Origin: a virus
Strand: one strand, 5' to 3'
Virus record (IMG/VR): IMGVR_UViG_3300032665_000045
Span: 1 to 51,257 of that record
DNA: 51,257 nucleotides
The notes beneath the pieces were generated by a model. The model was not told the DNA's origin, searched no databases, and saw only the letters and a list, made by a program, of their open reading frames with translations. Below, piece after piece: positions 924 through 45,186 of the stretch (position 1 is its first letter; each line of letters opens with the position of its first letter). The position numbers and the translations under genes are program-made.

Positions 924-1178
924 TTATATATCTTCTAATATCAAAGAAATTTTTAATTCCCTTCTTTTTTGAACAAGTATCTCATTAAATTCTTCATGAG
1001 TAAAAATATCATAATAATTACTAAAGTCTATACCTTGCTTTTCTTTAATAAATTCATAATCACTAATTTTACTAAATTCTATTAAAGAATAATATTCTAA
1101 TTTAGGACTACCATTATGAGAAGATACTATATATGTATCCTCAAACCAAAAAAAATCTCTTCCATATTTATAAATCAT
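924..1178 (-). CDS. Small protein with shared C-terminal RxxxIxxIL motif, 84 aa
   Basis: No known domain is recognised. The protein is rich in Tyr, Phe and acidic residues and ends RRELKISLILEDI. That tail matches the tails of many other small proteins in this window and is closest to the gene just upstream (QRELKLNKILDDL). Its start overlaps the stop of that gene by 11 bp, so the two are probably translationally coupled and read from the uvsE transcript. Confidence 0.65.
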   Translation of the reverse strand: MIYKYGRDFFWFEDTYIVSSHNGSPKLEYYSLIEFSKISDYEFIKEKQGIDFSNYYDIFTHEEFNEILVQKRRELKISLILEDI

Positions 1179-1437
1179 CTAATATCTTATTTAGTTTTAA
1201 TTCTCTTTGTTTACATTTTATAATATTATTCATTTGATTAACATCTACATCAATAATTTTATCAGTATCTTTTAACATAATCCATTCTTTATATCTAAAA
1301 ATACTAGTATTAGTTATAGATCCTATAACATAGTTTTTTGTTTCCCACAAACTAGTTTCTCTTATGATTGTGTTATTAATATAAAATTTATCATCCTCAA
1401 ACCAAGAATAAAAATTCTGTATTTTATAATACTCCAT
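1168..1437 (-). CDS. Small protein with shared C-terminal RxxxIxxIL motif, 89 aa
   Basis: A longer frame begins with TTG at 1464, but the ATG at 1437 (MEYYKIQNFYSW) is the better start and overlaps the 3' end of uvsE by 14 bp. The tail is QRELKLNKILDDL. The body contains strand-like segments (KFYINNTIIRETSLWETKNYVIGS) resembling the small proteins at 38730-39685, which suggests one divergent family. The function is unknown; the overlap suggests co-translation with uvsE. Confidence 0.65.
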   Translation of the reverse strand: MEYYKIQNFYSWFEDDKFYINNTIIRETSLWETKNYVIGSITNTSIFRYKEWIMLKDTDKIIDVDVNQMNNIIKCKQRELKLNKILDDL

Positions 1438-2341
1438 AATCTTTTCTATACTTAAATAAAGCAATATCTTTTTCTTTACATTCTAAATCTGTATCAAAAT
1501 CTAATCCGAAAGTTTCAATTTTTTCATACAAAAAATCAGCATGAGCAGTTTCTTTTGAAGAAACATCTTCAATTCTTCTTGAAGAAGACATATGTGTTAG
1601 AGGTTTAATACTTCCCCATGTTGAATAAGCTAATTTAAGAGCTTCTTCCATAGTTTGGTCTTGTGGACCATATTTATAGTGATGTTGGTCAAAACAAATT
1701 GGGACTTTTATCTGTTTATAGATAAACTCATATAACATTTTAACTGAATATTGAGATAATTTATCATCATTTTCAATAGTCAATCTTTTTCTAGTATTTT
1801 CGTCTAATAGAAAAAAGTTTTCCGTAAATCTTTCAGCAGCTTCTTCTCTCGTAGGTTGAGTAGTATTTATATGTATATTAATTGGATAATACCTAGTAGC
1901 ATCCAATCCCATCAAATCCATCATTTGAGAATGTTTGTTCAAATCATCAATTGATTTTTCAACAACTGATTCTGTTTCACTTGCCAAAACTGTATAAGGG
2001 CCTGGGTGGGCCGATAGCCTAATGGTATTAGTTTTAGCATAATCTCCTATTTTTTTAAGTAAACTACATATCTTAGTATAGTCAGGTAATTCTTCTAAGT
2101 TAAATTCACTAAACCAAGGTATCATATCACTTGATAGACGATAAACAAAAATTTTATTTTTGACATTGTATTTAAGAACTTCTAAACAATCAATTAAATT
2201 TAATAAAGATAGTTCTGATGCGTAAGGTAACCCTTTTTCTAAGAAAGTTTTACGAATCATACCTCTATTAACTTTTATGAAATCTTTTGGTCTTCTACCT
2301 ATATTTATACCATTACTTATACAACAATATCCAATAGCCAT
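1424..2341 (-). CDS. uvsE: UV damage endonuclease UvsE/UvdE
   Basis: A 305-residue TIM-barrel UV endonuclease, which nicks DNA 5' of pyrimidine dimers and other lesions. The family's metal-site segments appear in order: GYCCISNG near the N-terminus, HPGPY at 112-116 followed by VLAS, INIHINT at 155-160 (H157), TIENDDK at 188-194 (E190), CFDQHH at 216-221, THMSSS at 249-254 and AHAD at 266-269. Length is normal for the bacterial and phage family. A host-type promoter lies about 30 bp upstream, and two small genes follow with overlapping starts. The role would be repair of UV-damaged phage DNA. Confidence 0.93.
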   Translation of the reverse strand: MAIGYCCISNGINIGRRPKDFIKVNRGMIRKTFLEKGLPYASELSLLNLIDCLEVLKYNVKNKIFVYRLSSDMIPWFSEFNLEELPDYTKICSLLKKIGDYAKTNTIRLSAHPGPYTVLASETESVVEKSIDDLNKHSQMMDLMGLDATRYYPINIHINTTQPTREEAAERFTENFFLLDENTRKRLTIENDDKLSQYSVKMLYEFIYKQIKVPICFDQHHYKYGPQDQTMEEALKLAYSTWGSIKPLTHMSSSRRIEDVSSKETAHADFLYEKIETFGLDFDTDLECKEKDIALFKYRKDYGVL

Positions 2342-2369
2342 ATTTTTTTAATTTATTTTATTTTATATA

Positions 2370-2401
2370 CAAATATAATAAAAAATTATCAAAAAAACAA
2401 A
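2370..2401 (-). promoter_or_regulatory. Bacteroidota-type promoter for uvsE
   Basis: Read on the minus strand: TTTG, a 20-bp spacer, then TATATTTG (TAnnTTTG class). The -7 box ends about 29 bp before the uvsE ATG. Spacing is one base longer than the usual 19. Confidence 0.6.
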
Positions 2402-2426
2402 AAAAATATACACACGAATAAGTATA

Positions 2427-2439
2427 TTTTTAATATATA
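2427..2439 (+). promoter_or_regulatory. TTTTTAATATATA box before the GIY-YIG gene
   Basis: TTTTTAATATATA lies 13 bp before the ATG at 2453. The same box recurs before at least seven other genes in the window and resembles a phage late-type promoter more than the host TTTG/TAnnTTTG type. Confidence 0.45.
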
Positions 2440-2452
2440 AAAATAAAAATAT

Positions 2453-5489: not shown

Positions 5490-5873
5490 TTATATATTAA
5501 GAAGAATATGATTTAATCTTTCTTCTCTATTATATAAGTTTGCAAAATGCTTTAACGAAATATAAGTAGATAAAATATTTGAATATATATTTTCAAAATA
5601 CAATTTATTTAAATCTAACTTAGATTCATTATTAAATTCATCAAAAAGATATTTAGTTTTGGAAACTTCTTGAGCATTTTTAAATTGCTCAAAAATATTA
5701 TCATTAAACTCAGTAAAATAATAATAAAGACCTCGATTTCCAAAATTTTCATTTAATGGTATTGTATAATAACCAGCTTCATATTTTGTTGATTTTAGAT
5801 ATAAATAATCGTTATCAAAGAAAAAATAGTAAGGTTCTCCCCGATAATTTAAAAATAATATTACTTTTTTCAT
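5490..5873 (-). CDS. Hypothetical protein with C-terminal tag-like motif, 127 aa
   Basis: No family recognised. It begins with a strand-rich stretch (KKVILFLNYRGEPYYFFFDNDYLYL) and ends NREERLNHILLNI, a member of the shared C-terminal motif set. It starts 2 bp after the sirtuin gene stop, so the two probably share a transcript. Confidence 0.7.
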   Translation of the reverse strand: MKKVILFLNYRGEPYYFFFDNDYLYLKSTKYEAGYYTIPLNENFGNRGLYYYFTEFNDNIFEQFKNAQEVSKTKYLFDEFNNESKLDLNKLYFENIYSNILSTYISLKHFANLYNREERLNHILLNI

Positions 5874-7174: not shown

Positions 7175-7198
7175 GATTCTTAATTAAGAATCCTATTT
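7169..7198. terminator. 30-bp perfect palindrome between convergent genes
   Basis: AAATAGGATTCTTAA and its exact complement form a 30-bp palindrome spanning the stop codons of both convergent genes. It has only short A/T tails, so it may act as a weak bidirectional terminator or as a protein-binding palindrome. Confidence 0.6.
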
Positions 7199-7623
7199 AA
7201 TGTAAAATCTCTTTGAATACTATGATTAGTTATTACACAATCTCTCACCTCATAACAAACATGCATAGTTTCTAAATTAATTATTTTATTTATAGAATAA
7301 AGACATAAATATCCATTTATACCATTTATATAATATTCATAATCATCTAAAGTATCATAATATGTATGACCTGCTTTTGTTTCGATAACTTCACCAGTAT
7401 TATATACTACACGAGTAGTTATATAAATTGTTATATAATCTATTTTAGAACCTAATCTATCCCAAAAATCGGTAAACCATAAATCTAATGGTATTTTTTT
7501 AACATAATCACTTGTGACTCCTGATGAGTCACAAGTTTTTATTAAATGAACTAATGTATTTAAAGTTAAGTGGTCTACTTTATATAAACCAGTATCCATA
7601 GTTAATAATTGTAAGTAATTCAT
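7180..7623 (-). CDS. Hypothetical protein with C-terminal tag-like motif, 147 aa
   Basis: Unrecognised soluble protein with strand-rich sequence (ITIYITTRVVYNTGEVIETK). It ends QRDFTLNRILN, matching the shared C-terminal motif. It lies 2 bp after the nusG stop and thus in the replication/transcription gene cluster 7180-9551. Confidence 0.7.
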   Translation of the reverse strand: MNYLQLLTMDTGLYKVDHLTLNTLVHLIKTCDSSGVTSDYVKKIPLDLWFTDFWDRLGSKIDYITIYITTRVVYNTGEVIETKAGHTYYDTLDDYEYYINGINGYLCLYSINKIINLETMHVCYEVRDCVITNHSIQRDFTLNRILN

Positions 7624-9807: not shown

Positions 9808-10212
9808 TTATAAGTTTTTCAGTATTTCTTCAATTCTATCGTCTCGTTCCTCAGCCTGTAATAATTTATCAAGATAATTTTTTATATCATCATCATTTAT
9901 TAATAACCCATTCTTTTTTAAGGATTTATAAAAAGCAATTCCATGAACATCTATTTGAGTTAAATATAATTGTTGAAAAGTATCTTCTATTATTTCAAAT
10001 TTTTTACCCAATACTTCAATACTTACTTTAGGATATTGATAAGTAAATGTAGAAGTACCAATTGTATAAGGAAGATAAGTAGTTCCTGTTGATGATGTAC
10101 TACTTAATGTTGTCGTACTAGATCCTGATGCTCCTGTTATTATTGTTTGGCAATAACCATTGGTTATTGTATTAGTACCATATCTTGATGCTATTGATTT
10201 TCTTGGTTTCAT
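9808..10212 (-). CDS. Small paralogue A with low-complexity N-terminus and C-terminal tag, 134 aa
   Basis: Residues about 10-55 are Ser/Thr/Gly/Tyr-rich (TTTLSSTSSTGTTY), followed by a conserved domain VSIEVLGKKFEI...QIDVHGIAFYKSLKK and the tail EERDDRIEEILKNL. The next gene upstream has the same domain order and motifs, so this is a tandem duplication. The IEVLGKKFEI/YTITLLGRKFEL segment and the Phe-Tyr-Lys-Ser-Leu-Lys helix are the conserved core. Function unknown; a surface or adhesion-like N-terminus is possible. Confidence 0.75.
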   Translation of the reverse strand: MKPRKSIASRYGTNTITNGYCQTIITGASGSSTTTLSSTSSTGTTYLPYTIGTSTFTYQYPKVSIEVLGKKFEIIEDTFQQLYLTQIDVHGIAFYKSLKKNGLLINDDDIKNYLDKLLQAEERDDRIEEILKNL

Positions 10213-16266: not shown

Positions 16267-16530
16267 ATGAAGGAAATAACAGTAGAACAAGCTACAAAGC
16301 ATATAGAGTATATGGAATCGAAAAAATTAACTATAAAATATGAGTCTTTATATAACCATTTATGTGAGTTTAAGGAAGCATGTATAAATAAAAGAATTTA
16401 TATTACTCAGCAAAAATTTGAACAAGCTGCCTATTGTAGAGATATAGAAAGACAAATTATTAATAAAATTGGAAATGATCTCCCTTCTTTACTCAGAGAT
16501 CTTGTATTAGAAGAAATACTTAACTCATAA
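16267..16530 (+). CDS. Small paralogue with UVR-like helix and C-terminal tag, 87 aa
   Basis: Helical protein with QQKFEQAAYCRDIERQI (about 49-65), which resembles the UVR (UvrB/UvrC interaction) helix pattern FE-x-A-A-x-x-R-D. It ends LLRDLVLEEILNS, a variant of the shared C-terminal motif. The next gene is a diverged tandem copy with the same length and ending. Confidence 0.65.
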   Translation: MKEITVEQATKHIEYMESKKLTIKYESLYNHLCEFKEACINKRIYITQQKFEQAAYCRDIERQIINKIGNDLPSLLRDLVLEEILNS

Positions 16531-16540: not shown

Positions 16541-16807
16541 ATGACACAATTAACAGCTGAAAAAATTCTAAGTTATTTAGAATTAAATAGCTATAACAAT
16601 ATTATTAATAGAATAATCTTATACAGGTTTATTGATTATCTTAAATATGTAAATGTAAATAAAATGATATATATAGCTTCTGAAAATCAAAAAGAAATTG
16701 AAAAATGTATAGAGATGGAAAATGAAACTATTGAAAAAATAAAAAAGGAATTTCCATCTCTATACAGAGATATTGTATTAGACGAGTTGTTAAATGGATT
16801 AAATTAA
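16541..16807 (+). CDS. Small paralogue with C-terminal tag, 88 aa
   Basis: Tandem paralogue of the preceding gene (10-bp gap): the same helical layout, IYIASENQKEIEKCIEMENE in place of the UVR-like helix, and YRDIVLDELLNGLN at the end. The FE-x-A-A core has been lost. It overlaps the convergent methyltransferase gene by 4 bp. Confidence 0.65.
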   Translation: MTQLTAEKILSYLELNSYNNIINRIILYRFIDYLKYVNVNKMIYIASENQKEIEKCIEMENETIEKIKKEFPSLYRDIVLDELLNGLN

Positions 16808-17425: not shown

Positions 17426-19324
17426 TTATTTTTTAGAAATTAATTCAAATTTGATTTTACCACAGTCATATATTTTGTTGATGCCTAGATTTTCCATAAT
17501 TTGAGATTCTGTTAAAGATATATCATGACCTAATTTTTGAAGTTTATTTTTAGTAAAATTTTGTTTAGATTTTCTTATGTTATCAACAATATATTTATAG
17601 TCAGGTTTAGATTCACTTAAAAGATTAAAACCTAATTTAAAGTAGAGATTTCCATTAGACCAATCTTTATCAGCATAACTAATAATCCTTTTAGGTTTGT
17701 TTTCTTTAATAAAGTAATTTAATAATTTAGATGCCCCACCTACAACATTAGTGTTTAATAAATTACAAAATCTATTTAAATTCCAACCTGATTCTTCCAT
17801 ATTTAAACGTCCTTCTTTTTTATCAAAACACATTAAACTAACTAAAACTCCATTATGGTAAAGACCATATGCTTTATTACAAACAACAAATCCTTGTATA
17901 TGATTTTGATTTAAAAAATTTCTATATTCTTCTACATTTACTATTTGTTTCACCAAGCATTTTCGAGCATATATTTTAGTTTTAGTAATTCCTAACCAAT
18001 TATTTATTTGAGATTTAATTATATTTAAATTATTATCAAAATCATCTTCATAAATAAATTTTATGTCAATTTGACGTTCTTTAAAATAATTCAATTTATT
18101 AATATGATAATTTGAATCTTTGAATTTTTCAGAATGCCAGTATAATCCATTAAATTCTATGCCTAATTTAAGATCAGGTAAATATATATCTATTTCTATA
18201 CCATCACGATATCCTGAAATAATTTCTCCATTATAAATTGATTTAATATATTCTAATAAAATCTTTTCTTTAATAGATTTGTTATCCCCTATGGGATAAC
18301 AAATCGTACAAAGTGGTAAATTTGTTTTTGATCTTCCATGGAAATTATCACAATTAATTTCAAATTCATGATCTTTATTTAAATCACATTTAAATATAGA
18401 AGTATAATTATTTATATATTTAATATAATTAGGATGTTGACCTATTATAGTATTTATTTTACTTTCTTCTGATTTTTTATAATTATCTACACCATATTTA
18501 TTTATATTTGAATCTTTTGATTTAGTTAAATAATCTTCACTTTTTATGTAGAATTCAACCCCATATTTTTCTAAATTTGTTTGTTTAATTTTTTCTTTAA
18601 TTTCTTCATTTTGAAAAACGTTAACAACCCCATATTTTTCTAAATTTGTTTGTTTAATTTTTTCTTTAATTTCTTCATTTTGAAAAACGTTAACAACCCC
18701 ATACTTTTCTAAATTAGTTTCTTTTATTCTATCTTTAAAAGTATTGGTTTTAGAATAATGTTCAACTCCATATTTTTCTAAATTAGTTTGTTTAAAATTA
18801 TTTAAATATTCTTTAGTTTTAGAATAATTTTCAACACCATATTTATCTAAATTAGTTTGTTTAATTTTTTCCTTACATTCAGAAGTTTTAGAATAATACT
18901 CAATCCCGTATTTTTCTAAGTTAGTTTCTTTAATTTTATTTTTAAATTTTTCAACTTTCATAGGGTTATCAACTCCGTATTTTTCTAAATTAGTTTGTTT
19001 GCCTTTTTCTTTAATAATTTTATTTTGTGTAGGATTTTCAACACCATATTTATCTAAATTAGTTAATTTATTTTTTTCTTGAGAACATTTACCTTTACAA
19101 CTATAAAAATTATAGTTACCAATATTTTTATTATATAAATAATATTGAGTCTTTTTTTCTATTCCACAAATATCACAAACAACATCAACTTCTATAAGGG
19201 AAGTTGATTTTAAGTGAATTATATCAAATTCAATAGTATTATCATTAGAATTATAAACACCTTTGTCTAAATAATATTTATAATGACTTTTATTTGGTAC
19301 TATAATTTTTTTAGTAATTAGCAT
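17426..19324 (-). CDS. NLEKYGV-repeat homing-endonuclease-like protein, copy 1 (632 aa)
   Basis: Four parts are visible. (1) N-terminal zinc-ribbon-like segment, CDIC (50-53) and CKGKC (76-80). (2) Nine ~23-residue repeats with the core TNLEKYGV (about 88-295), a likely modular DNA-recognition array. (3) A PD-(D/E)XK/Vsr-like nuclease segment: GYRDGIEIDIYLPDLK, IEFNGLYWHS, and YHINK with EDDF. (4) A GNAT-like C-terminal domain (GGASKLL, IISYADKDW, NGNLYFKLGF). Four relatives are in the window. They sit between unrelated phage genes, as free-standing homing endonucleases do. The target is unknown. Confidence 0.8.
   Translation of the reverse strand: MLITKKIIVPNKSHYKYYLDKGVYNSNDNTIEFDIIHLKSTSLIEVDVVCDICGIEKKTQYYLYNKNIGNYNFYSCKGKCSQEKNKLTNLDKYGVENPTQNKIIKEKGKQTNLEKYGVDNPMKVEKFKNKIKETNLEKYGIEYYSKTSECKEKIKQTNLDKYGVENYSKTKEYLNNFKQTNLEKYGVEHYSKTNTFKDRIKETNLEKYGVVNVFQNEEIKEKIKQTNLEKYGVVNVFQNEEIKEKIKQTNLEKYGVEFYIKSEDYLTKSKDSNINKYGVDNYKKSEESKINTIIGQHPNYIKYINNYTSIFKCDLNKDHEFEINCDNFHGRSKTNLPLCTICYPIGDNKSIKEKILLEYIKSIYNGEIISGYRDGIEIDIYLPDLKLGIEFNGLYWHSEKFKDSNYHINKLNYFKERQIDIKFIYEDDFDNNLNIIKSQINNWLGITKTKIYARKCLVKQIVNVEEYRNFLNQNHIQGFVVCNKAYGLYHNGVLVSLMCFDKKEGRLNMEESGWNLNRFCNLLNTNVVGGASKLLNYFIKENKPKRIISYADKDWSNGNLYFKLGFNLLSESKPDYKYIVDNIRKSKQNFTKNKLQKLGHDISLTESQIMENLGINKIYDCGKIKFELISKK
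18557..18694. repeat. Exact 69-bp tandem duplication inside endonuclease copy 1
   Basis: Two identical 69-bp units (18557-18625, 18626-18694) encode one 23-residue NLEKYGV unit each (VVNVFQNEEIKEKIKQ...). No base differs, so this is a recent unit duplication. Confidence 0.9.
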
Positions 19325-19328
19325 TAAT

Positions 19329-20024
19329 TTATTTTCTTTTATATATTATTTCATCAATTATTCCATAATCTTTAGCTTCTTTAGCACTCAGCCAATAATC
19401 TCTATCACCGTCTTTTAATACTTTATTATAATCTTGTCCTGTGCTTTCAGAAATTATAGTGTATAATTCTTTTTTTAAGTGATTAATTTCTTTTGCTTCA
19501 ATTTCTATTTCGATTGCTTGTGAAAAACCTAAAAATCCAGATGGTTGATGTATCATAACTCTTGAACGTTTTAATGATTTTCTTTTTCCTTTAGCCCCTG
19601 AACATAAAATTATAGCCCCCATTGAAGCTGCTAATCCAGTATTAATTGTACATACATCTGGTTTTATATATTCAATTGTATCTAATAATCCTAAACCATC
19701 ATACACACTACCTCCTGGACTGTTTATATATAAATTTATATCTTTATTTGGGTCTAGTTGTTCTAGATAAATTAGTTGTGCTTTGAGAATATCACATAAC
19801 ATATCATCAATTTCTCCAGATAGAAATAAGATTCTATCATCTAATAATTTAGTAAAAACATCTACATAACCACCTGTTCTATCATCAGATATTATAGGGG
19901 ATACATTATTTTTATGGTATTTAATATAAGATTGTGGTATTTTTTTACTTATTAAGTATTTTTCAAAATCCTTCATATTATTTTTTATTTTCATATAATT
20001 TTTTTCAAAAAAGTTTAAAAACAT
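19329..20024 (-). CDS. clpP: ClpP-like serine protease
   Basis: ClpP fold with an intact triad: GLAASMG (S134), MIHQPSG (H159) and DRDYWLSAKEA (D209). NSPGGSVYDGLGLLDTI (101-117) is the oxyanion-side motif. At 231 aa it has an extra ~40 N-terminal residues compared with bacterial ClpP; internal Met11 or Met17 (MKDFEKYL) are alternative starts. It is wedged between two endonuclease genes with 3-4 bp gaps. In a phage this may be a prohead/maturation protease or a proteolytic tool against the host; the nearby acidic scaffold-like genes favour the former. Confidence 0.92.
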   Translation of the reverse strand: MFLNFFEKNYMKIKNNMKDFEKYLISKKIPQSYIKYHKNNVSPIISDDRTGGYVDVFTKLLDDRILFLSGEIDDMLCDILKAQLIYLEQLDPNKDINLYINSPGGSVYDGLGLLDTIEYIKPDVCTINTGLAASMGAIILCSGAKGKRKSLKRSRVMIHQPSGFLGFSQAIEIEIEAKEINHLKKELYTIISESTGQDYNKVLKDGDRDYWLSAKEAKDYGIIDEIIYKRK

Positions 20025-20027
20025 TAA

Positions 20028-21914: not shown

Positions 21915-21919
21915 AATAT

Positions 21920-21933
21920 TATATATTAAAAAA
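21920..21933 (-). promoter_or_regulatory. TTTTTTAATATATA box before endonuclease copy 2
   Basis: Minus strand, ending 5 bp before the ATG at 21914. Confidence 0.45.
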
Positions 21934-22000
21934 GATTAAAAAGATTAAAAACGAATATTTAATAATAATATATATACTATAATTAAAAAAAAATAATATT

Positions 22001-22324
22001 ATGAAAACAACAATCGAAATTAATGGTTACGAAGTAGTAATTGAAGAAACAGAAGGTGTTTTAACAGTTAAAGCTCAAAAAGACGAAGAAACAATCGAAG
22101 AATTTGAAATTGACACTACAGAAGAAGGTGAAGGCGAAGGCGTTCAAGCTTTTGGTGAAGGTGAAGATGACGAAGATTTTGAAGATGAAGATGGTGAAGA
22201 CTTCGGTGATGAAGACGGAGAAGACTTTGGTGACGAAGAATTTGAAGAAGGTGAAGAATCAGCTCAAGACGAAGAAGAAACTAAATTAGAATCTTTCAAT
22301 TCTTTTATCAAAAAAAGAAAATAA
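22001..22324 (+). CDS. Acidic scaffold-like protein 1, 107 aa
   Basis: After a short folded-looking N-terminus (MKTTIEINGYEVVIEETEG) the protein becomes an Asp/Glu/Gly/Phe repeat region (EDGEDFGDEDGEDFGDEEF) and ends DEEETKLESFNSFIKKRK. Strong acidity with a small basic tail is like T4 prohead core proteins. The tail is shared almost exactly with the gene at 24250, separated from it only by endonuclease copy 3. It is probably an internal head or scaffold component, by inference only. Confidence 0.7.
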   Translation: MKTTIEINGYEVVIEETEGVLTVKAQKDEETIEEFEIDTTEEGEGEGVQAFGEGEDDEDFEDEDGEDFGDEDGEDFGDEEFEEGEESAQDEEETKLESFNSFIKKRK

Positions 22325-24189: not shown

Positions 24190-24249
24190 ATTTTTTAATT
24201 ATATTATATTAATATATATTAATAGTTCAAAAAATAAAAAATAACGAAT

Positions 24250-24408
24250 ATGAGAATAATGAAATTTAACGAAGAAGGTGAAGAAGGTGAAGATGGTGAC
24301 ATCAAAGCTTTTGGAGACGAAGAAGGTGGCGATGACTTCGGTGGAGCTCCACAAGATGAAGAAACTAAATTAGAATCTTTCAATTCTTTTATCAAAAGAA
24401 GAAATTAA
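24250..24408 (+). CDS. Acidic scaffold-like protein 2, 52 aa
   Basis: ATG at 24250 (or the second Met at 24259, MKFNEE) to TAA at 24408. It starts MRIMKFNEEGEEGEDGD, continues with AFGDEEGGDDFGG, and ends DEETKLESFNSFIKRRN. Order and motifs match acidic protein 1 in shortened form (AFG, DDF, then the same basic tail). Unlike protein 1, it also has a capsid-targeting-like N-terminus (M-K-F-N-E). Confidence 0.7.
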   Translation: MRIMKFNEEGEEGEDGDIKAFGDEEGGDDFGGAPQDEETKLESFNSFIKRRN

Positions 24409-24437
24409 TTTCTCATTAAATAATGAGAAATTAATTT
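24402..24437. terminator. 17-bp stem terminator after acidic gene 2
   Basis: AAATTAATTTCTCATTA pairs perfectly with TAATGAGAAATTAATTT around a 2-nt loop, starting inside the last codons of the gene. Confidence 0.7.
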
Positions 24438-24470
24438 AATAAGAGTTACTAAATAAGAAGGTTTTTATTT

Positions 24471-30122: not shown

Positions 30123-30344
30123 TTAATTATTTAGTATTTTATTAATTTTAATTTCTCTCATGTCTGATTTTTTTATAAATCTAATCTCATTATAATAAAA
30201 AGAATCATTACTATCATTTTCAATTAGTAAATCCCCAGAATATGTAACATCTTCTACTTTATATTCTTGGAATAGGGTTAATGATGCTTTCCCATTTATT
30301 ACGCATACGACTATTTCACCTTTTTCAAAATTTTTATTTGCCAT
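30123..30344 (-). CDS. Small protein with C-terminal tag-like motif, 73 aa
   Basis: Begins MANKNFEKGEIVVCVINGKA, with a small beta-barrel-like pattern (GEIVVCVINGK, YKVEDVTYSGDLLI, YYNEIRFI), and ends MREIKINKILNN, one of the clearest examples of the shared tail. It is driven by a perfect host-type promoter, so it is probably an early gene. Confidence 0.7.
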   Translation of the reverse strand: MANKNFEKGEIVVCVINGKASLTLFQEYKVEDVTYSGDLLIENDSNDSFYYNEIRFIKKSDMREIKINKILNN

Positions 30345-36857: not shown

Positions 36858-36888
36858 TAAATATACAAAAAGTTTTTAACTTTTCAAA
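36858..36888 (-). promoter_or_regulatory. Bacteroidota-type promoter for the MoxR gene
   Basis: Minus strand: TTTG, 19 bp, TATATTTA (last base off consensus), 36 bp before the ATG at 36822. Confidence 0.6.
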
Positions 36889-37040
36889 ATTTTATTTATT
36901 TTTCTTTCTCTTATAAGAGATTTTATTTTAACAATTCTTTCAGCACCTTTATCCGTTTTTTCATCTAAAATAGATATATATGTTTGTAAAACATCATTAG
37001 ATGCATTATGCATTCTAACTTCAAATTTCCTATCTGTCAT
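36876..37040 (-). CDS. Tiny protein with C-terminal tag-like motif, 54 aa
   Basis: ATG at 37040, TAA at 36876. It starts MTDRKFEVRMHNASNDVLQT and ends LIRERKINKILKS. The next gene upstream is also 54 aa and ends LIRDKKIEKILES, while the N-terminal halves differ. The host-type promoter 20 bp upstream is perfect, so this short ORF is very likely expressed early. Confidence 0.7.
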   Translation of the reverse strand: MTDRKFEVRMHNASNDVLQTYISILDEKTDKGAERIVKIKSLIRERKINKILKS

Positions 37041-37060: not shown

Positions 37061-37091
37061 CAAATATACGAAAAATTTTTAACTTTCCAAA
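37061..37091 (-). promoter_or_regulatory. Bacteroidota-type promoter (TTTG-N19-TATATTTG)
   Basis: Minus strand: TTTG at 37091-37088, 19-bp spacer, TATATTTG at 37068-37061; lies over the 3' end of the upstream tiny gene. Confidence 0.75.
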
Positions 37092-37243
37092 ATTTTTTCT
37101 ATTTTTTTATCTCTTATGAGAGATTTAATTAATAGTTCATCCTCTGTATCAGAGGCACATTTAAGAAAAAATTCTAAATGTTTTATTGATAGTAAATGTA
37201 ATATACTTTTAAGTGCTTCTATATCAATAGCGGATTTCATCAT
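37079..37243 (-). CDS. Tiny protein with C-terminal tag-like motif, 54 aa
   Basis: Two adjacent ATGs (37243, 37240) begin MMKSAIDIEALKSILHLLSI; the end is LIRDKKIEKILES. The leader carries TATATTTG at 37264-37271 in the same context (TTTCGTATATTTGATATATCA) as the gene downstream, so gene plus promoter look like a duplicated unit with a replaced body. Confidence 0.68.
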   Translation of the reverse strand: MMKSAIDIEALKSILHLLSIKHLEFFLKCASDTEDELLIKSLIRDKKIEKILES

Positions 37244-38211: not shown

Positions 38212-38439
38212 TTAATCTAATATTTGATTAATTTTTTGTTCTCTAATAACCCACTTTAAATTTTCAATTTGTTTTTGCTTTTCAGCAATTTCAAGTGAGA
38301 TTCTATACATTTCATCGTATAATCTATTATTAAAAAAATTAGGTGTCATTTGTAATTTTAAATTACATTTTTCATATTTATCTTTTAAAGAAGCTAATTG
38401 GTCTTCAAGCCACATTTTTTCGTAAGAATAATTAATCAT
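38212..38439 (-). CDS. Coiled-coil small protein with C-terminal tag-like motif, 75 aa
   Basis: Mostly helical, with heptad-like sequence (LEDQLASLKDKYEKCNLKL; ISLEIAEKQKQIENLKWVI), ending IREQKINQILD. Its start overlaps the upstream gene by 8 bp. It is the last gene of an overlapping five-gene run. Confidence 0.68.
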   Translation of the reverse strand: MINYSYEKMWLEDQLASLKDKYEKCNLKLQMTPNFFNNRLYDEMYRISLEIAEKQKQIENLKWVIREQKINQILD

Positions 38440-38737
38440 TTTTTAATACTTGGTTTATTGTGTAATTTCTATTTAATACCTTACCTAATTCTTTATTTCT
38501 TTTTGTAACGAATTTTACTCTGCTTAATGAAGGTCTATCTACATTATTTCTTTTACTTTCATCAACATTATTCCAATAATAATCTTTACATTTAGTTTTT
38601 ACTTTGCTCTTACAAAATGCTTGATTATAATGTTTTTTTATTTCAGACGTTCCACAAGAAGGACATACAAATGTATTACCGACTTTTATGGATTTTGCTA
38701 AATTATATGCTTCTTTTAATAACTCTATTTTAGTCAT
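38432..38737 (-). CDS. Zinc-ribbon small protein with C-terminal tag-like motif, 101 aa
   Basis: C25-P-S-C28, C42 and C50 form a likely zinc ribbon (FVCPSCGTSEIKK...AFCKSK...KCKDYYW). The tail is NRNYTINQVLKND. It could bind nucleic acid. It overlaps its neighbours on both sides by 8 bp. Confidence 0.7.
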   Translation of the reverse strand: MTKIELLKEAYNLAKSIKVGNTFVCPSCGTSEIKKHYNQAFCKSKVKTKCKDYYWNNVDESKRNNVDRPSLSRVKFVTKRNKELGKVLNRNYTINQVLKND

Positions 38738-39026
38738 TTATTATACTATTTATTATTTTGTTTCTATTTATGTATTTTACAAATAAGTCAACGGAATCAA
38801 AAAAAGGTAAATCTTTTTCCCAATAATTATTTAATTCTCTAATTAAATCATTTGCTAATGTTAAGTTTAAGTATTTACCAGGAACAGAAGATACTAAATA
38901 CATTTCATTAGTAAAATAATAATGTATTTCTCCTTCGTAATACCCACATAAAATGTAGGTATTACTTAAAGTATAGACAAATGACCATTCAATTTTTTCT
39001 AAATCTTCAATTGTTTTTGGTATCAT
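38730..39026 (-). CDS. Small protein with C-terminal tag-like motif, 98 aa
   Basis: Strand-rich centre (FVYTLSNTYILCGYYEGEIHYYF) and tail NRNKIINSIIND. The overall pattern (short strands, then a helix carrying LIRELNNYWEK, then the tag) is similar to the next two genes, suggesting a diverged tandem family. Function unknown. Confidence 0.68.
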   Translation of the reverse strand: MIPKTIEDLEKIEWSFVYTLSNTYILCGYYEGEIHYYFTNEMYLVSSVPGKYLNLTLANDLIRELNNYWEKDLPFFDSVDLFVKYINRNKIINSIIND

Positions 39027-39035: not shown

Positions 39036-39371
39036 TTAATCTGCACATATTGTATTTATTACTTTTAATCTTTTAAAGTATTTTTCCATTATTACAACGC
39101 TATTAAATTGAATTAAATTTTTAGTTTTTAATTCAATTAAATAATCATGTTGTTCTGAACGAAGAAATAATTTATTTGTTATATCAAACAAAAATGAAAT
39201 TGATGGAGTATAAAATAAATTACCTTTTGGGGTATATACATATAGTTTATACTCAATATCATCTAATCCTACTAAATAATTTTCTACTTTTACCCAAAAT
39301 AACCTTTCAAGATTTTCAGCTTTTTTTATTGGGGTAAAAATCATTTTATACTGATTTTTATTAATTTTCAT
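39036..39371 (-). CDS. Small protein with C-terminal tag-like motif, 111 aa
   Basis: Shares with the next gene the order FWVKVENYLVGLDD..., DITNKLFLRSEQHDYLIELK and a last helix KYFKRLKVINTICAD. The tag is less regular here (ICAD). Tandem paralogue of 39368-39685; 4-bp overlap. Confidence 0.68.
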   Translation of the reverse strand: MKINKNQYKMIFTPIKKAENLERLFWVKVENYLVGLDDIEYKLYVYTPKGNLFYTPSISFLFDITNKLFLRSEQHDYLIELKTKNLIQFNSVVIMEKYFKRLKVINTICAD

Positions 39372-39685
39372 AAAATGCTATTTATTACTTTTATTCTGTT
39401 AAAATATTTTTTTACTTCTAATAACGATTTAAACTCTGGTATATTTCTTTGTCTTAATTCAATTAAATAATATCTTTCTTTTTCAGAAATGGATACCATA
39501 TTTATATTATTATATAAATAATCTATATCTGAAAATGTAAATAAAGTATTAAATACATTAAATCTATAAAAAATATTTTTATCATTATCATATCCTATTA
39601 TATTATTGCCATATTTTACCCAATTAAAATCTTGTATAAAATACAACTTTTTTCTAGTAGGATTGCTAATTCTAGATGTTTTCAT
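39368..39685 (-). CDS. Small protein with C-terminal tag-like motif, 105 aa
   Basis: FNWVKYGNNIIGYDNDKNIF, then ISEKERYYLIELRQRN and the end KYFNRIKVINSIL. First gene of the run 39685 to 38212; TATATTTG lies 18 bp before its ATG. The shared YLIELxxxN...KYFxRxKVIN core with the next gene identifies a small family of unknown function. Confidence 0.7.
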   Translation of the reverse strand: MKTSRISNPTRKKLYFIQDFNWVKYGNNIIGYDNDKNIFYRFNVFNTLFTFSDIDYLYNNINMVSISEKERYYLIELRQRNIPEFKSLLEVKKYFNRIKVINSIL

Positions 39686-40968: not shown

Positions 40969-41112
40969 ATGAAAAAATCAATCTTAATTTCGGAAGAAAT
41001 ACACAAAAAATTAAAAGTTTATTGCGCCAATAATGATATAAAAATTATTGATTGGATAGAAGAACTAATACAAAAAGAATTAGAAAAGGAGGTAAAAGAT
41101 GCTGATAACTAA
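40969..41112 (+). CDS. Ribbon-helix-helix-like DNA-binding protein, 47 aa
   Basis: Short ORF ATG 40969 to TAA 41112: a strand KKSILIS, helix EEIHKKLKVYCANND, then IKIIDWIEELIQKELEKE, as in RHH repressors and in the small protein at 3255. It overlaps the following endonuclease gene by 14 bp, and its lysine/glutamate codons include the endonuclease's AAAGGAGG ribosome-binding site. Likely an autoregulator of the cassette. Confidence 0.7.
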   Translation: MKKSILISEEIHKKLKVYCANNDIKIIDWIEELIQKELEKEVKDADN

Positions 41113-42004
41113 AGAAGTTGAAGTTCAATTAAGAAAAAATAAAAAACATTATGAAAGTTTAGGATATGATACTAATGTTGATATAGGAGAGATAACTATA
41201 ATTAAAACAGAACATTTAACAAAAGGTTCTCATACAAAAGTAATAGTTGCTTGTGATTTTTGTGGTAAAGAAAGTACCAAAGATTATAAACAATATTTAA
41301 CCGAAATTAAAGATGTTAATATAAACGCTTGTTCTAATAAAGAATGTTCTAACCAAAAAATTAAAGCAGTTTGTCTCAAAAAATATGGAGTTGAAAATGC
41401 TTTTCAAGCAAAAGAGTTCAAAGAAAAAATTAAAAATACTTTAATGGAAAAATATGGAGTGGAACATCCAATGTATTTAGATGAAACAAAAGATAAAATT
41501 AAAGATACTTGTGTTGAAAAATATGGAGTTAGTTCATATACAAAAACTATTGAATGTATAGAAAAAACTAAAAAAACTAATTTAGAAAAATATGGATTTG
41601 AATATACTAATCAATCCAAAGAAGGAAAATTAAAAAGAAAATTAACAAGAATTAATAAAGGATCTCAAATTCCCGATGAAAAATTATCTGACTATATAGT
41701 ATATAGAAGAAAAATTGATAATTTTACAGACGTAAATAGAAAAAAACTAATTGAATTATGGGATGGTTATGATTTTTACGATGGTGAATATATTAAAGAT
41801 AATTTTAATTTAGATTATACTGATAGATTATATCCGACAATAGATCATAAAGTATCAGTTTATTATGGATTTATTAATGGCATTGATATTGATGAGATTG
41901 CTAATTTTAATAATTTATGTTTTACTAAACATTACTTAAATTCAAAAAAACGTGAAAAAAATCATGATATATTTATTGAGGAATTAAAAAAAGCCGAAGA
42001 TTAA
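41099..42004 (+). CDS. NLEKYGV-repeat endonuclease with HNH-type C-terminus, 301 aa
   Basis: Same MLITK start, CDFCG/CSNKEC zinc-ribbon-like segment and four KYGV repeats as the big endonucleases, but the C-terminus differs. TIDHKVSVYYGFINGIDID, then NFNNLCFTKHYLNSKKRE, reads as an HNH-type nuclease (His, central Asn, C-terminal Asn/Lys). There is no GNAT-like domain. A strong AAAGGAGG Shine-Dalgarno sequence sits 6 bp before the ATG, unusual in this genome. Confidence 0.82.
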   Translation: MLITKEVEVQLRKNKKHYESLGYDTNVDIGEITIIKTEHLTKGSHTKVIVACDFCGKESTKDYKQYLTEIKDVNINACSNKECSNQKIKAVCLKKYGVENAFQAKEFKEKIKNTLMEKYGVEHPMYLDETKDKIKDTCVEKYGVSSYTKTIECIEKTKKTNLEKYGFEYTNQSKEGKLKRKLTRINKGSQIPDEKLSDYIVYRRKIDNFTDVNRKKLIELWDGYDFYDGEYIKDNFNLDYTDRLYPTIDHKVSVYYGFINGIDIDEIANFNNLCFTKHYLNSKKREKNHDIFIEELKKAED

Positions 42005-43537: not shown

Positions 43538-44179
43538 TTATATCACTATTCTTATATTATCTGATGAAACAATTAGAGTTTCTATTTCAGAAAGACTTGT
43601 TTCTAAATTAAATCTTTCAAAATAACTTAATTCTCTATTTAAGTTAAATGTATATTTTGTTTTTCTTTTATCCGTTATGTTTTCTGAAATTAATATTTCA
43701 GTTTCTATATTTTTTAGTAAAGATTCTTCAATATTATAAATATTTTTCTTTACCTTCTCCACTTCTTCGTAATCATCATCATAATAATTATCACCTAAAT
43801 CTTCTTCATCTTCTTTAGTTTCATCTTCTTTAGGCTTATCCCAACATTCTAAAAATGTATTTAAGTAATCTTTATCAAATCTTTTATTTTCAAAAATATC
43901 TTGAATATCTTTAGATAAGTTTTTTATTTCAGATACTTTAGTGATTTTTTCGTCTTCACTAGCACTTGCCAGGTATCTCCAATTTATTGTATTATTAAGT
44001 AATTCATTTTTAGATATTTCTAATACTAGCGGTATGTTAACACCTTCTACTTTCGATTTTAATGAAATTTCAAAGTAAAAATCTGATTTTTTAGATTTTT
44101 CTGTAATTTTTACATTTTCAAATTTTTGCTTCAAATCCCAATCAATAATATTGATGTTCTTAACGACCATATTTTCCAT
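43538..44179 (-). CDS. Hypothetical acidic protein, 213 aa
   Basis: Unrecognised. The N-terminal ~115 residues are a mixed fold (KSDFYFEISLKSKVEGVNIP). A very acidic linker follows (KPKEDETKEDEEDLGDNYYD), then a strand-rich C-terminus. An alternative ATG lies at 44170. It overlaps the gene upstream by 20 bp. Confidence 0.65.
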   Translation of the reverse strand: MENMVVKNINIIDWDLKQKFENVKITEKSKKSDFYFEISLKSKVEGVNIPLVLEISKNELLNNTINWRYLASASEDEKITKVSEIKNLSKDIQDIFENKRFDKDYLNTFLECWDKPKEDETKEDEEDLGDNYYDDDYEEVEKVKKNIYNIEESLLKNIETEILISENITDKRKTKYTFNLNRELSYFERFNLETSLSEIETLIVSSDNIRIVI

Positions 44180-44366
44180 AGGTAAATAATTCTTTTTTTA
44201 TATCTTCTATATTATCAATTTTCTTCTTTTTGAGAGCTTGATAAATAAAATTTATTGCTTCTTCAATCTCACTATTATCATGAGATGTTATGATAGTTTC
44301 TAATTCTTCATTTATGTTATAATCATGTAAATCATAAAGAAAGTGTAAAATGTCTGAATCTTTCAT
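44160..44366 (-). CDS. Small helical protein, 68 aa
   Basis: Start at 44366 (MKDSDILHFLYDLHDYNINE), chosen over the upstream in-frame ATG because a TTTTAATATATA box lies 5 bp before it. Helical throughout (SEIEEAINFIYQALKKKKID). Function unknown. Confidence 0.6.
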   Translation of the reverse strand: MKDSDILHFLYDLHDYNINEELETIITSHDNSEIEEAINFIYQALKKKKIDNIEDIKKELFTYGKYGR

Positions 44367-44371
44367 AAAAG

Positions 44372-44383
44372 TATATATTAAAA
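44372..44383 (-). promoter_or_regulatory. TTTTAATATATA box
   Basis: Minus strand, 5 bp before the ATG at 44366; same spacing as at the two tnpB genes and at 40877. Confidence 0.45.
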
Positions 44384-44391
44384 TATAAATA

Positions 44392-44679
44392 TTAATCTTG
44401 CAACAATTTTGATAAAATATAATCACGAAACTCTTGTGTAGGCACAGATCCTAACTCATAAGCCTTACGGAAAAAAACTTCATATATATTCATATATCCT
44501 AATTCTTTAGCCGCCATTGCTCTGTTTATGGCTTTCCATTCATCTTTAATTAATTTAGCTTGTTGATTTGCTAACTTTTCTTGCTTATCAAGGTCTCCTA
44601 AAGATTTTGATACAATATCTTTAATTCTTTGATAATTTTTTTCAAATTCTGCTGGTGATTGTCCGTTGTAGTATCTCAT
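44392..44679 (-). CDS. Small helical protein with C-terminal tag-like ending, 95 aa
   Basis: Begins MRYYNGQSPAEFEKNYQRIK, then helices (LANQQAKLIKDEWKAINRAM, KELGYMNIYEVFFRKAYELG), ending FRDYILSKLLQD. The ending fits the shared motif loosely (R-D-x-x-L-x-x-L-L-x-D). No known family. Confidence 0.65.
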   Translation of the reverse strand: MRYYNGQSPAEFEKNYQRIKDIVSKSLGDLDKQEKLANQQAKLIKDEWKAINRAMAAKELGYMNIYEVFFRKAYELGSVPTQEFRDYILSKLLQD

Positions 44680-44721
44680 AATAAAACTTTTTTATTTTAT
44701 ATAAAAAATATTTCATTATGT

Positions 44722-45186
44722 TTAATGTTCTGTTAAAAATGATGCTAACGTAGCATCCCTATTTGTAAGGTTTTTTATATCAGATAAATGTGATAAATCA
44801 TCATCTGATATTAATATTGAGCAAATATCAATAGTTCTCCTATCTTGAATGGATTTATGATATTTTCTCATAGGTTTTAAGTAAGTATGAATAGGTAAAC
44901 TTACTGTTTCATGTGCATACATTAATTGTGTGTAATCTTCGTTATAGAAAGTCATTTCAATTTTTTGAAATTGTTTTCCTATTTCTAAATTATTGGGAAT
45001 CCATTCAATATCTTTATAATTTTCATATTTATTTAATAACCCATGATTACTTAATAAATGAACATCATTTTCATCAAAATCTATGATTAGATATTTATTC
45101 AATACTTTTTCCTTATAATTACGATAATCTTTGTCTACTATAATATAGATGTTCTCTATTAGAAATTGTTTACTATAATCTTTCAT
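44722..45186 (-). CDS. Hypothetical protein with C-terminal tag-like ending, 154 aa
   Basis: Soluble mixed-fold protein (FLIENIYIIVDKDYRNYKEK; EIGKQFQKIEMTFYNEDYTQ) ending NRDATLASFLTEH, a loose match to the shared tail. Starts 1 bp after the next gene upstream ends. Function unknown. Confidence 0.65.
   Translation of the reverse strand: MKDYSKQFLIENIYIIVDKDYRNYKEKVLNKYLIIDFDENDVHLLSNHGLLNKYENYKDIEWIPNNLEIGKQFQKIEMTFYNEDYTQLMYAHETVSLPIHTYLKPMRKYHKSIQDRRTIDICSILISDDDLSHLSDIKNLTNRDATLASFLTEH

What the first reader, a model, noticed from the sequence alone, without database searches (positions are those of the whole stretch)
924..45186. A common C-terminal peptide on about 18 unrelated small proteins
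Many small genes end in nearly the same tail, R-[DEN]-x-x-[ILV]-[NED]-x-[IL]-L-x-[ND]-stop, while their bodies differ. Clear cases: 924 (RRELKISLILEDI), 1168 (QRELKLNKILDDL), 5490 (NREERLNHILLNI), 7180 (QRDFTLNRILN), 9808 (ERDDRIEEILKNL), 10214 (QERDTQLENILEKIN), 30123 (MREIKINKILNN), 36876 (IRERKINKILKS), 37079 (IRDKKIEKILES), 38212 (IREQKINQILD), 38432 (NRNYTINQVLKND), 38730 (NRNKIINSIIND), 39036 (FKRLKVINTICAD) and 39368 (FNRIKVINSIL). Looser cases: 16267, 16541, 44392, 44722. The bodies include a zinc ribbon, a coiled coil, a UVR-like helix and a low-complexity domain. Several of the genes sit behind host-type promoters, suggesting early expression. A mobile C-terminal docking or sorting tag (host protease or polymerase adaptor, subcellular compartment, or degradation signal) would explain one tail on many bodies.
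Basis: partly seen in the sequence, partly recalled or inferred. Interest (0 to 1): 0.85.

Follow-up and report, generated by a model that had tools for sequence, protein, structure and literature searches.

The report
Shared C-terminal tag on phage proteins
A group of giant phages puts the same short tail on the end of about a fifth of their proteins, mostly small and unrelated ones that look early-expressed; this appears to be a common docking handle, possibly for the phages' own protein-destroying machine, and we found no published description of it.

Summary
A profile trained on another phage (LR745206) finds all 18 reader genes among 74 called, against about 0.5 expected. The window is a fragment of a Mahaphage relative. 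In three complete 634-642 kb genomes the tail is on 185/948, 186/931 and 161/905 genes (2.7, 3.2, 5.1 expected). A model-free core near the stop gives 109, 110 and 88 (1.8, 1.7, 1.0 expected), but 2/991 in the 735-kb relative, 0/577 in Lak-A1 and 0/204 in part of Atu_ph07. Bodies are small and mostly unrelated (430 clusters for 550 proteins). In these genomes the tail avoids proteins with an N-terminal T4-like capsid tag (3 seen, 37 expected in LR756502) and genes with a late-type upstream element. Phages speak dialects in one fixed register. This points to one common partner. The best lead is a phage Clp machine: of seven genes shared by tailed phages and missing from the 735-kb phage, three are ClpP paralogues and one ClpS; this rests largely on one lineage contrast. 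The tag is near certain, the Clp reading a hypothesis.

The parts
924..1178 (-). 84-aa protein, tail RELKISLILEDI
   Evidence: profile score 15.4
1168..1464 (-). 98-aa protein, tail RELKLNKILDDL
   Evidence: score 19.0
5490..5873 (-). 127-aa protein, tail REERLNHILLNI
   Evidence: score 9.8
7180..7623 (-). 147-aa protein, tail RDFTLNRILN
   Evidence: score 13.6
9808..10212 (-). 134-aa protein, tail RDDRIEEILKNL; paralogue of 10214
   Evidence: score 17.0; tailed homologues in LR756502 and LR745206
10214..10633 (-). 139-aa protein, tail RDTQLENILEKIN
   Evidence: score 13.4; AF2 model poor (mean pLDDT 42.5), tail predicted in helix 112-138
16267..16530 (+). 87-aa UVR-like helical protein, tail RDLVLEEILNS; resembles the M-region of phage ClpC
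   Evidence: score 15.7; family HMM matches phage ClpC around residues 291-339, E 5e-7 to 6e-5; Pfam UVR only E 0.048, below cut-off
16541..16807 (+). 88-aa paralogue of 16267, tail RDIVLDELLNGLN
   Evidence: score 16.0
30123..30344 (-). 73-aa protein, tail REIKINKILNN; most of its six matches in other phages also end in such tails, partly because the tail itself helps the match
   Evidence: score 20.5
36876..37040 (-). 54-aa protein, tail RERKINKILKS
   Evidence: score 21.8
37079..37243 (-). 54-aa protein, tail RDKKIEKILES
   Evidence: score 20.9
38212..38439 (-). 75-aa coiled-coil-like protein (by eye), tail REQKINQILD
   Evidence: score 20.7
38432..38737 (-). 101-aa protein with a Zn-ribbon-like body, tail RNYTINQVLKND
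   Evidence: score 12.0; PHROG families 8162, 23365, 10881 and 7424 match the body; Pfam Zn_ribbon_IS1595 E 0.0088, below cut-off
38730..39026 (-). 98-aa protein, tail RNKIINSIIND
   Evidence: score 13.2
39036..39371 (-). 111-aa protein, tail RLKVINTICAD; paralogue of 39368
   Evidence: score 4.2, weakest of the 18
39368..39685 (-). 105-aa protein, tail RIKVINSIL
   Evidence: score 7.5
44392..44679 (-). 95-aa five-helix protein, tail RDYILSKLLQD as the last helix; homologues end RDYKLSKLGI, REYQMDKLGI, RNYKLEKLGI
   Evidence: score 15.0; alignment; AF2 mean pLDDT 90.4, helix 81-94
44722..45186 (-). 154-aa protein, tail RDATLASFLTEH (weak)
   Evidence: score 5.5
19329..20024 (-). phage ClpP, candidate partner machinery (not tailed)
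   Evidence: Pfam CLP_protease E 3.9e-67; relatives in 9 of 10 records searched, none in the 735-kb phage

Best explanation
The tail is a short docking peptide, probably an amphipathic helix (register R1-[DENK]2-x-K4-[IL]5-x-x-[IL]8-[LGN]9, then usually 0-5 residues and stop), that tethers a large set of small, apparently early, fast-turning-over accessory proteins to one common partner. My most likely partner is a Clp protease assembled from phage-encoded ClpC-type unfoldase, ClpP and ClpS, so that each tailed protein works as an adaptor whose body binds a different host (or phage) protein and whose tail hands it to the protease. Shown: the tag, its C-terminal place, peptide-level selection, one register with genome-specific dialects, absence of the late-type upstream element, avoidance of the N-terminal capsid-type tag in three genomes, and a phage Clp set in those three tailed phages. 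Inferred: that the tag binds, that the partner is Clp, and that bodies bind targets.
For: Enrichment at C-termini. Bodies mostly unrelated, small (178 of 747 genes up to 250 aa tailed, 7 of 201 longer, LR756502) and mostly without known domains (at most 6 of 150 scanned match any Pfam family). Homologues keep the tail (56 of 60; reverse 53 of 63), but between distant phages the tailed repertoire is replaced: 2 of 185 tailed LR756502 genes have a homologue in LR756504, against 180 of 763 untailed (Fisher 1e-16). Dialects: position 2 is mostly D or E in LR756502, LR745206, G002, G003 and G005 but K in LR756504 and G004; position 9 is mostly L, G or N; of 58 homologous tailed pairs across dialects, 41 fit their own genome better (Wilcoxon 5e-6, leave-one-out). 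Codons at R1 follow genome usage. Late-type upstream element nearly absent. Clp: of 7 LR756502 genes with BLASTP hits in LR745206, LR756504 and at least 3 of 4 other tailed contigs but not in the 735-kb phage, three are ClpP paralogues and one is ClpS, that is two of about five families. The unfoldases of LR756502, LR745206, G003 and G004 have a [IV]GF ClpP-docking loop (meaning recalled); that of the 735-kb phage has none; in G004 clpS and clpC have one gene between them. The tailed family 16267 resembles the M-region of phage ClpC. [quoted passage not shown] the C-terminal XB peptide of SspB is enough to recruit ClpXP to a target (PMC12373786, passages).
Against: The Clp association rests mainly on one lineage (735-kb phage and its DPYGEE relatives) plus Lak; the three ClpP genes are paralogues and not independent. 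With a laxer rule and a more sensitive search 22 of 102 shared genes are missing from the 735-kb phage, so Clp is not unique. Lak-A1 has ClpP and a ClpX-like unfoldase but no tail; Atu_ph07 is reported to have ClpX/A/P/S and 150 of its 490 kb shows no tail. ClpS was found in only 9 of 26 records; it is missing from the tailed contig G003 (344 kb) and from G009-G015, G017 and G018, all partial. The ClpC of LR756502, LR745206 and G003 lacks an obvious N-domain, the usual adaptor site (site recalled). No tail-partner contact could be modelled. No target is known for any body. The 16267-ClpC likeness may be just a shared UVR motif. The dialect signal is absent between G002 and the LR756502/LR745206 group (10 of 19).
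Confidence: 0.32

Rival explanations
1. Same docking helix, but on a different hub: RNA polymerase, ribosome, membrane site, a replication compartment or a phage scaffold. The tag brings early proteins to where they work.
For: All tag evidence fits any single partner; the Clp link is only a profile with few independent contrasts. Other genes share the profile, e.g. a J-domain-like, a NUDIX-like and a CCA-transferase-like protein (names from recalled motifs).
Against: No other machine shows up with more than one component in the profile that I could recognise. Invariant R1 (used as anchor; 92-94% in the unanchored models of LR756502 and LR745206) and the defined register argue against unspecific membrane binding.
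Confidence: 0.37
2. The tail is a degron: it marks the early proteins themselves for timed destruction by the phage Clp protease, clearing them before late gene expression.
For: C-terminal place, genes without the late-type element, phage ClpP/ClpS/ClpC present; the CTS class mostly does not carry it.
Against: The distance from motif to stop varies from 0 to 8 residues, though it peaks at 1, unlike terminal-carboxylate degrons (recalled). It is rare on larger proteins (7 of 201) and its carriers are replaced between distant phages, odd for a general clearance signal.
Confidence: 0.2
3. All tailed proteins are highly diverged members of one family and the tail is simply its best-kept part.
For: Several window bodies look alike in length and aromatic-rich, strand-like pattern by eye (39036, 39368, 38730, 5490); paralogue pairs exist.
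Against: 430 body clusters for 550 proteins; bodies include a Zn-ribbon-like body with outside relatives, a UVR-like helix pair, a five-helix protein and endonuclease VII, HNH and HD matches.
Confidence: 0.04
4. The tail is a by-product of a DNA or RNA signal at gene ends (start region of the next gene, promoter, recombination site).
For: Tailed genes are packed, median gap -1, -1 and 1 in the three phages; mild preference for ATA, TTA and GGA codons at positions 8-9.
Against: Codons at R1 follow genome usage and synonymous identity is close to expectation (0.51 against 0.54 at R1; at most 0.56 against 0.38, position 8, LR756502). Tailed genes with no same-strand gene within 60 nt keep the tail (41, 52 and 60 genes, mean scores 16.1, 15.5 and 13.6 against 17.4, 17.0 and 15.1).
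Confidence: 0.02
5. The tail is a packaging signal for proteins carried in the virion.
For: T4-like phages use short tags for this (capsid targeting sequence; search listing, and recalled).
Against: The tail avoids the N-terminal CTS-like tag (3 against 37, 8 against 32, 4 against 12.6 expected) and the late-type upstream element.
Confidence: 0.04

Closest known systems
T4 capsid targeting sequence (CTS) on internal head proteins
   Same: A short shared peptide on several otherwise unrelated proteins of one phage
   Different: CTS is N-terminal, late and removed by the prohead protease (recalled); the R tail is C-terminal, on genes without the late-type element, and avoids CTS-like proteins
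XB tether of SspB and other Clp adaptor peptides
   Same: C-terminal peptide that tethers a small adaptor to an AAA+ protease (PMC12373786 passages)
   Different: Different motif (recalled); on one adaptor, not on 18-20% of a phage's genes; the XB peptide works regardless of position in the polypeptide, the R tail is found at C-termini
SPO1 Gp53 ClpC adaptor-like protein
   Same: Phage host-takeover protein acting on ClpC, needing an Arg and Leu (PMC6873191)
   Different: A single 25-kDa protein acting on host ClpC; no family of tailed proteins described in the passages seen
ssrA and other C-terminal degrons
   Same: C-terminal peptide that directs proteins to a Clp protease
   Different: Other sequence (recalled); distance to the stop varies 0-8 residues; encoded in each gene, not added by tmRNA
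PRANC / F-box-like C-terminal module of poxvirus ankyrin proteins (recalled)
   Same: Idea of one C-terminal handle on many target-binding bodies that recruits a degradation machine
   Different: Eukaryotic ubiquitin system; a folded domain rather than a 9-residue peptide
PicA/Imp1 import into the nucleus of Chimalliviridae
   Same: Selective sorting of phage proteins in the host cell (PMC11087766, search listing and abstract start)
   Different: Other phage family; no comparison of cargo signals was made here

Membership tests
One homologous protein family | Detectable homology of bodies | tested here: not met
   550 tailed proteins (of 551; one with a body under 25 aa dropped), tails removed, form 430 BLASTP clusters, 350 singletons
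T4 CTS-type capsid tag | N-terminal location | tested here: not met
   Core motif in the first 21 residues: 2, 2 and 3 genes against 109, 110 and 88 at C-termini
T4 CTS-type capsid tag | On late genes | tested here: not met
   Late-type element upstream of 1/185, 8/186, 5/161 and 0/19 tailed genes against 86/184, 59/152 and 30/65 CTS-like genes; that the element is a late promoter is inferred
Terminal C-degron (ssrA / ClpX C-motif type) | Fixed distance to the free carboxylate | tested here: not met
   0-8 residues after the 10-column motif, peak at 1
Terminal C-degron (ssrA / ClpX C-motif type) | Tail makes the protein unstable | not testable with these tools
   needs pulse-chase
Clp adaptor with C-terminal tether (SspB-XB type) | Short peptide at the end of a small target-binding protein | tested here: inconclusive
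   Tail and small bodies met; target binding unknown
Clp adaptor with C-terminal tether (SspB-XB type) | Tail binds a Clp unfoldase or protease | not testable with these tools
   no complex prediction offered; only a phylogenetic profile
Clp adaptor with C-terminal tether (SspB-XB type) | A Clp machine is available in the same phage | tested here: met
   ClpS, ClpP and a loop-bearing Clp unfoldase in LR756502, LR745206 and LR756504; in the window itself only ClpP (a fragment)
Single-receptor tag | Tail drifts together across the proteins of one genome | tested here: met
   Genome dialects in one register; 41 of 58 homologous pairs fit their own genome; no difference between G002 and the LR756502/LR745206 group (10 of 19); amino-acid composition not fully excluded

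The most novel reading that the evidence does not exclude
These phages carry a 'degrader proteome': on the order of 100-190 small early proteins per genome, each a natural PROTAC-like adaptor for a different host target, all plugged by one interchangeable C-terminal handle into a phage-made Clp protease, with the handle and its reader coevolving into lineage-specific dialects.
Probability: 0.2. Interest if true: 0.96.

Novelty: categorically new. Interest (0 to 1): 0.87.

Why it matters
I know of no phage with a shared C-terminal peptide on 18-20% of its genes, and my searches of the open-access library showed none in their listings (only open-licence papers are held and the lists are capped, so this is not proof). 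The tag gives a sequence handle on hundreds of phage proteins that have almost no recognisable domains, and one pull-down with a 12-residue peptide could name their common partner. If that partner is a protease, the bodies become a natural library of target binders for bacterial protein degradation. The mutual exclusion of the R tail and the N-terminal capsid-type tag suggests that these phages sort some 25-39% of their genes' products by two address labels (tail plus CTS-like: 369 of 948, 338 of 931 and 226 of 905).

Tried and rejected
Chance and composition: rejected by internal-position, shuffle and model-free tests. One protein family: rejected. DNA or RNA element at gene ends: rejected by codon use and by tailed genes without a close downstream gene. 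Virion packaging: disfavoured by mutual exclusion with the CTS-like tag and by upstream elements. In the window alone the N-terminal motif search found nothing above its null (LL 154 against 155) and tail and 'CTS' overlap as expected (4 against 4.2), so the exclusion rests on the three complete genomes. A first dialect test (own dialect preferred in 84 of 87 pairs) was inflated by different motif registers; I replaced it by the R-anchored leave-one-out test (41 of 58), which drops tails without the anchor (kept 179/185, 180/185, 139/178, 100/113, 36/63, 54/69 and 71/123 for LR756502, LR745206, LR756504, G003, G005, G002 and G004). In one search, identity at positions 1, 5 and 8 of homologous pairs is high partly by construction, so I do not use it. 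Small excesses in phages I call untailed: 735-kb phage 10 of 991 at 8 bits against 1.9 expected, Lak-A1 12 of 566 against 3.7 and Atu_ph07 4 of 202 against 1.2 with the LR756504 model; with the other models tried on Lak-A1 and Atu_ph07 the counts are 1-2. Pfam on the 18 window proteins: nothing above cut-off. Fold search of the 44392 model: no PDB match with E <= 0.001; in the viral library one uncharacterised marine-phage protein (E 1.3e-3, TM 0.74) and phage G Gp515 (E 0.37, probability 1.00, TM 0.57); uninformative. The second model (10214) was poor. Atu_ph07, tried as an independent Clp-rich phage, shows no tail: a result against a simple 'phage Clp implies tail' rule. A search for relatives of 16267 in IMG/VR gave one identical copy only. 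Gene calls come from my own simple caller, not a published one; Lak was read with TAG as Q.

Full report
WHAT IS THERE. The window is a 51-kb virus record at 24% G+C. Its MoxR-type ATPase is 58-60% identical to that of three 634-642 kb uncultured phages (LR756502, LR745206, LR756504) and 40% to that of a 735-kb phage (LR756501). Al-Shayeb et al. 2020 (PMC7162821; passages) report genomes of these sizes, put them in the Mahaphage clade and predict Bacteroidetes hosts; I matched the records by size, not by accession.

The strict pattern is found at 12 of 74 C-termini and nowhere internally. A profile trained only on LR745206 recovers all 18. Profiles trained on each genome give 185 of 948 genes in LR756502, 186 of 931 in LR745206 and 161 of 905 in LR756504, against 2.7, 3.2 and 5.1 expected from internal stretches. 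A model-free core pattern, R-x-x-[KR]-[IL]-x-x-[IL] within six residues of the stop, gives 109, 110 and 88 (expected 1.8, 1.7, 1.0), 76 of 472 in G003, 59 of 384 in G004, 26 of 382 in G002, 7 of 328 in G005, 1 of 42 in G001 and 8 of 74 in the window, but 2 of 991 in the 735-kb phage (0.6 expected), 0 of 577 in Lak-A1 and 0 of 204 in 150 kb of Atu_ph07. With profiles, the untailed phages show small excesses (735-kb phage 10 of 991 against 1.9; Lak-A1 12 of 566 against 3.7 with one of three models). Among 52 of the 54 IMG/VR loci found through the ATPase (L210 and L212 are in neither group, and I drew the groups), 25 loci of the close group give 70 of 745 (expected 1.3) and 27 of a second group give 17 of 455 (expected 0.3).

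ANATOMY. In one fixed register the tail reads R1-[D/E/N or K]2-x3-K4-[I/L]5-x6-x7-[I/L]8-[L/G/N]9 and ends a few residues before the stop, most often one after the ten-column motif, up to eight. Position 2 is mostly D in LR756502, LR745206, G002 and G005, E in G003, K in LR756504 and G004; position 9 is mostly L, but G in G003 and N in G004. Leave-one-out scoring separates most dialect pairs well (G004 against G003: 68/71 and 98/100), others poorly (G002 against the LR756502/LR745206 group: 25/54 and 273/359). Of 58 homologous tailed pairs that cross dialects, 41 fit their own genome better; for G002 against the LR756502/LR745206 group it is 10 of 19, no signal. Part of a dialect may reflect amino-acid composition, which I did not fully remove. 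The one good model, 44392, is a five-helix protein in which the tail is the last helix, residues 81-94, pLDDT falling from about 89 to 73.

SELECTED AS A PEPTIDE. Codons at R1 follow genome usage, and synonymous identity among tails is near expectation, with a mild excess at some positions, largest at position 8. Tails are as good, within about 1.5 bits, in genes with no close downstream gene.

WHO CARRIES IT. With tails removed, 550 tailed proteins from four phages (the window's 19 included) form 430 clusters. They are small: 178 of 747 genes up to 250 aa against 7 of 201 longer ones in LR756502. Of the 150 longest carriers in LR756502 and LR745206 scanned (75 from each; 371 in the two), at most 6 match any Pfam family (DUF6011, BtpA, HNH, HD, Fe-S assembly); PHROGs add endonuclease VII and a Lar-like restriction alleviation protein. 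Carriers stand next to each other more often than by chance (78 against 36 adjacent pairs in LR756502), on the same strand in 100, 94 and 91% of adjacent pairs. Between LR756502 and LR745206, 56 of 60 homologues of tailed genes are tailed (53 of 63 in the other direction), but only 7 of 402 homologues of untailed ones (3 of 389). Between LR756502 and LR756504, 2 of 185 tailed genes have any homologue, neither of them tailed there, against 180 of 763 untailed. So the tag is stable and its carriers are replaced almost wholesale, as expected of host-specific accessory proteins.

TWO ADDRESS LABELS. An unbiased N-terminal motif search finds a K-[YH]-[LI]-K-x-[YF]-N-E-F-like motif just after the start Met on 187, 160 and 69 proteins of the three phages (6, 9 and 3 expected by chance); it looks like the T4 capsid targeting sequence (likeness recalled) and is weakest in LR756504. 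It avoids the R tail: 3, 8 and 4 proteins have both, where 37, 32 and 13 are expected. The window alone is too small to show this. A TAATATATA-type element lies within 60 nt upstream of 86/184, 59/152 and 30/65 CTS-like genes, but of 1/185, 8/186 and 5/161 tailed genes; in the window it is 0/19 against 21/55 (Fisher 0.0008). That this element is a late promoter is my inference. Among tailed genes with at least 40 nt of upstream space, a TAnnTTTG box is more frequent in LR745206 (0.42 against 0.02 for CTS-like and 0.19 for other genes), but not clearly in LR756502 (0.21, 0.13, 0.18), and in LR756504 it is rarer than in other genes (0.07, 0.05, 0.27). So 'not late' is better supported than 'host-promoter early'.

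THE LEAD TO CLP. I asked which LR756502 genes have BLASTP hits in LR745206, LR756504 and at least three of four further tailed contigs but not in the untailed 735-kb phage. There are seven: three ClpP paralogues, one ClpS and three others. A more sensitive search with a laxer rule gives 22 of 102. Profile searches find ClpS in 9 of 26 records: the three complete tailed genomes, the tailed contigs G002, G004 and G005, and G006-G008, of which I saw only one 21-kb locus each (5 profile hits each, those of G008 weak). They find none in the 735-kb phage, Lak-A1, five DPYGEE-bearing contigs, the tailed contig G003 or nine further relatives. ClpP is in 12 of 26, including Lak-A1 but not the 735-kb phage, and a Clp-type unfoldase in 17 of 26, the 735-kb phage included. 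The unfoldases of LR756502, LR745206, G003 and G004 carry a [IV]GF loop where ClpC docks on ClpP; LR756504 has a VGF loop and a second ClpX-like protein; the 735-kb phage has a ClpB-like protein without the loop (loop meaning recalled). In G004 clpS and clpC have one gene between them. One tailed family, 16267/16541 with a homologue in LR756502 and one in LR745206, resembles the M-region of these phages' ClpC. Limits: one or two lineage contrasts, partial contigs, and the Atu_ph07 counter-example.

HOW IT MOST LIKELY WORKS. Given the pattern (one handle, many fast-changing small bodies, genes without the late-type element, a phage Clp set) I prefer adaptor tethering to Clp over self-destruction. 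Varying distance to the stop and restriction to small accessory proteins fit a tether better than a clearance degron. Iyer et al. 2021 already suggest that jumbo-phage ClpP and ClpS act on host proteins (PMC7824862, passages). SPO1 Gp53 is an experimental precedent for a phage adaptor-like protein on ClpC (PMC6873191, abstract and passages), and synthetic peptide degraders built on the SspB tether show that such a design can work in bacteria (PMC12373786, passages). I give 0.32 to this reading, 0.2 to a degron and 0.37 to another hub; that the tag itself is real I hold near certain.

NOVELTY. Searches of the held library for shared C-terminal tags in phages, Mahaphages, phage Clp adaptors and sorting signals showed no such description in their listings. 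As a mechanism it would belong among address tags; as a phenomenon (one C-terminal peptide on 18-20% of a phage's genes, in dialects) it matches no system I know.

Noticed in passing
LR756501.1 (735 kb; L113-L150): A different short motif, DPYGEE[NDE]W, is spread over the 735-kb phage: DPYGEE in 93 proteins, 105 copies (first copy at the C-terminus in 38, near the N-terminus in 22, elsewhere in 33; a looser pattern gives 94). It co-occurs with the CTS-like tag (35 observed, 14 expected) and its DNA pattern occurs in 71 stretches of IMG/VR contigs. It is absent from the window, LR756502, LR745206, LR756504 and G002-G005.
   Followed up: partly
LR756502.1, LR745206.1, LR756504.1; window 26082, 6617, 37295 look alike: A T4-CTS-like N-terminal motif on 187, 160 and 69 proteins of the three phages, far more than the handful known in T4 (recalled); it suggests a very large set of packaged proteins.
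   Followed up: partly
window, e.g. upstream of 37295, 24471 and 26082: TTAATATATAC-type element directly before late-type genes, in 21 of 55 untailed window genes; candidate late promoter of this clade.
   Followed up: partly
window 22001-22324 and 24250-24408 (+): Two acidic proteins share the C-terminus ETKLESFNSFIK[KR]R[KN], which looks like the CTS-like motif moved to the C-terminus.
   Followed up: no
window 45546-46151 (-): A rhomboid-like membrane protease (by eye) appears split over two ORFs (45846-46151 and 45546-45824).
   Followed up: no
window 17426-26018 and 1-392, 41099-42004: Expanded family of large proteins with TNLEKYGV(E) repeats; three copies are 78-80% identical to the 24471 gene at DNA level, one fragment 83%, perhaps homing-endonuclease-like; two TnpB-like genes at 11913 and 28843 (by eye).
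   Followed up: no
L010 2822-3316, 13720-14178, 14175-14600 (-): Three similar-looking proteins with CTS-like starts share another C-terminal end, N[PT]AADLL or NPAADRL.
   Followed up: no
LR756502 440544, LR745206 423224, G003 93802: Phage ClpC-type unfoldases have only a short N-terminal stretch before the first AAA domain and no obvious N-domain, though ClpS, which normally binds there (recalled), is encoded in LR756502 and LR745206.
   Followed up: no
MK250015 82901-85147: Lak-A1 ClpX-like protein has a roughly 300-residue insert in its Walker B region that looks intein-like.
   Followed up: no
LR756502 631374; LR745206 597241: Two tailed proteins contain an FNSLYP stretch like motif A of family B DNA polymerases (recalled) but are only about 210 aa long.
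   Followed up: no
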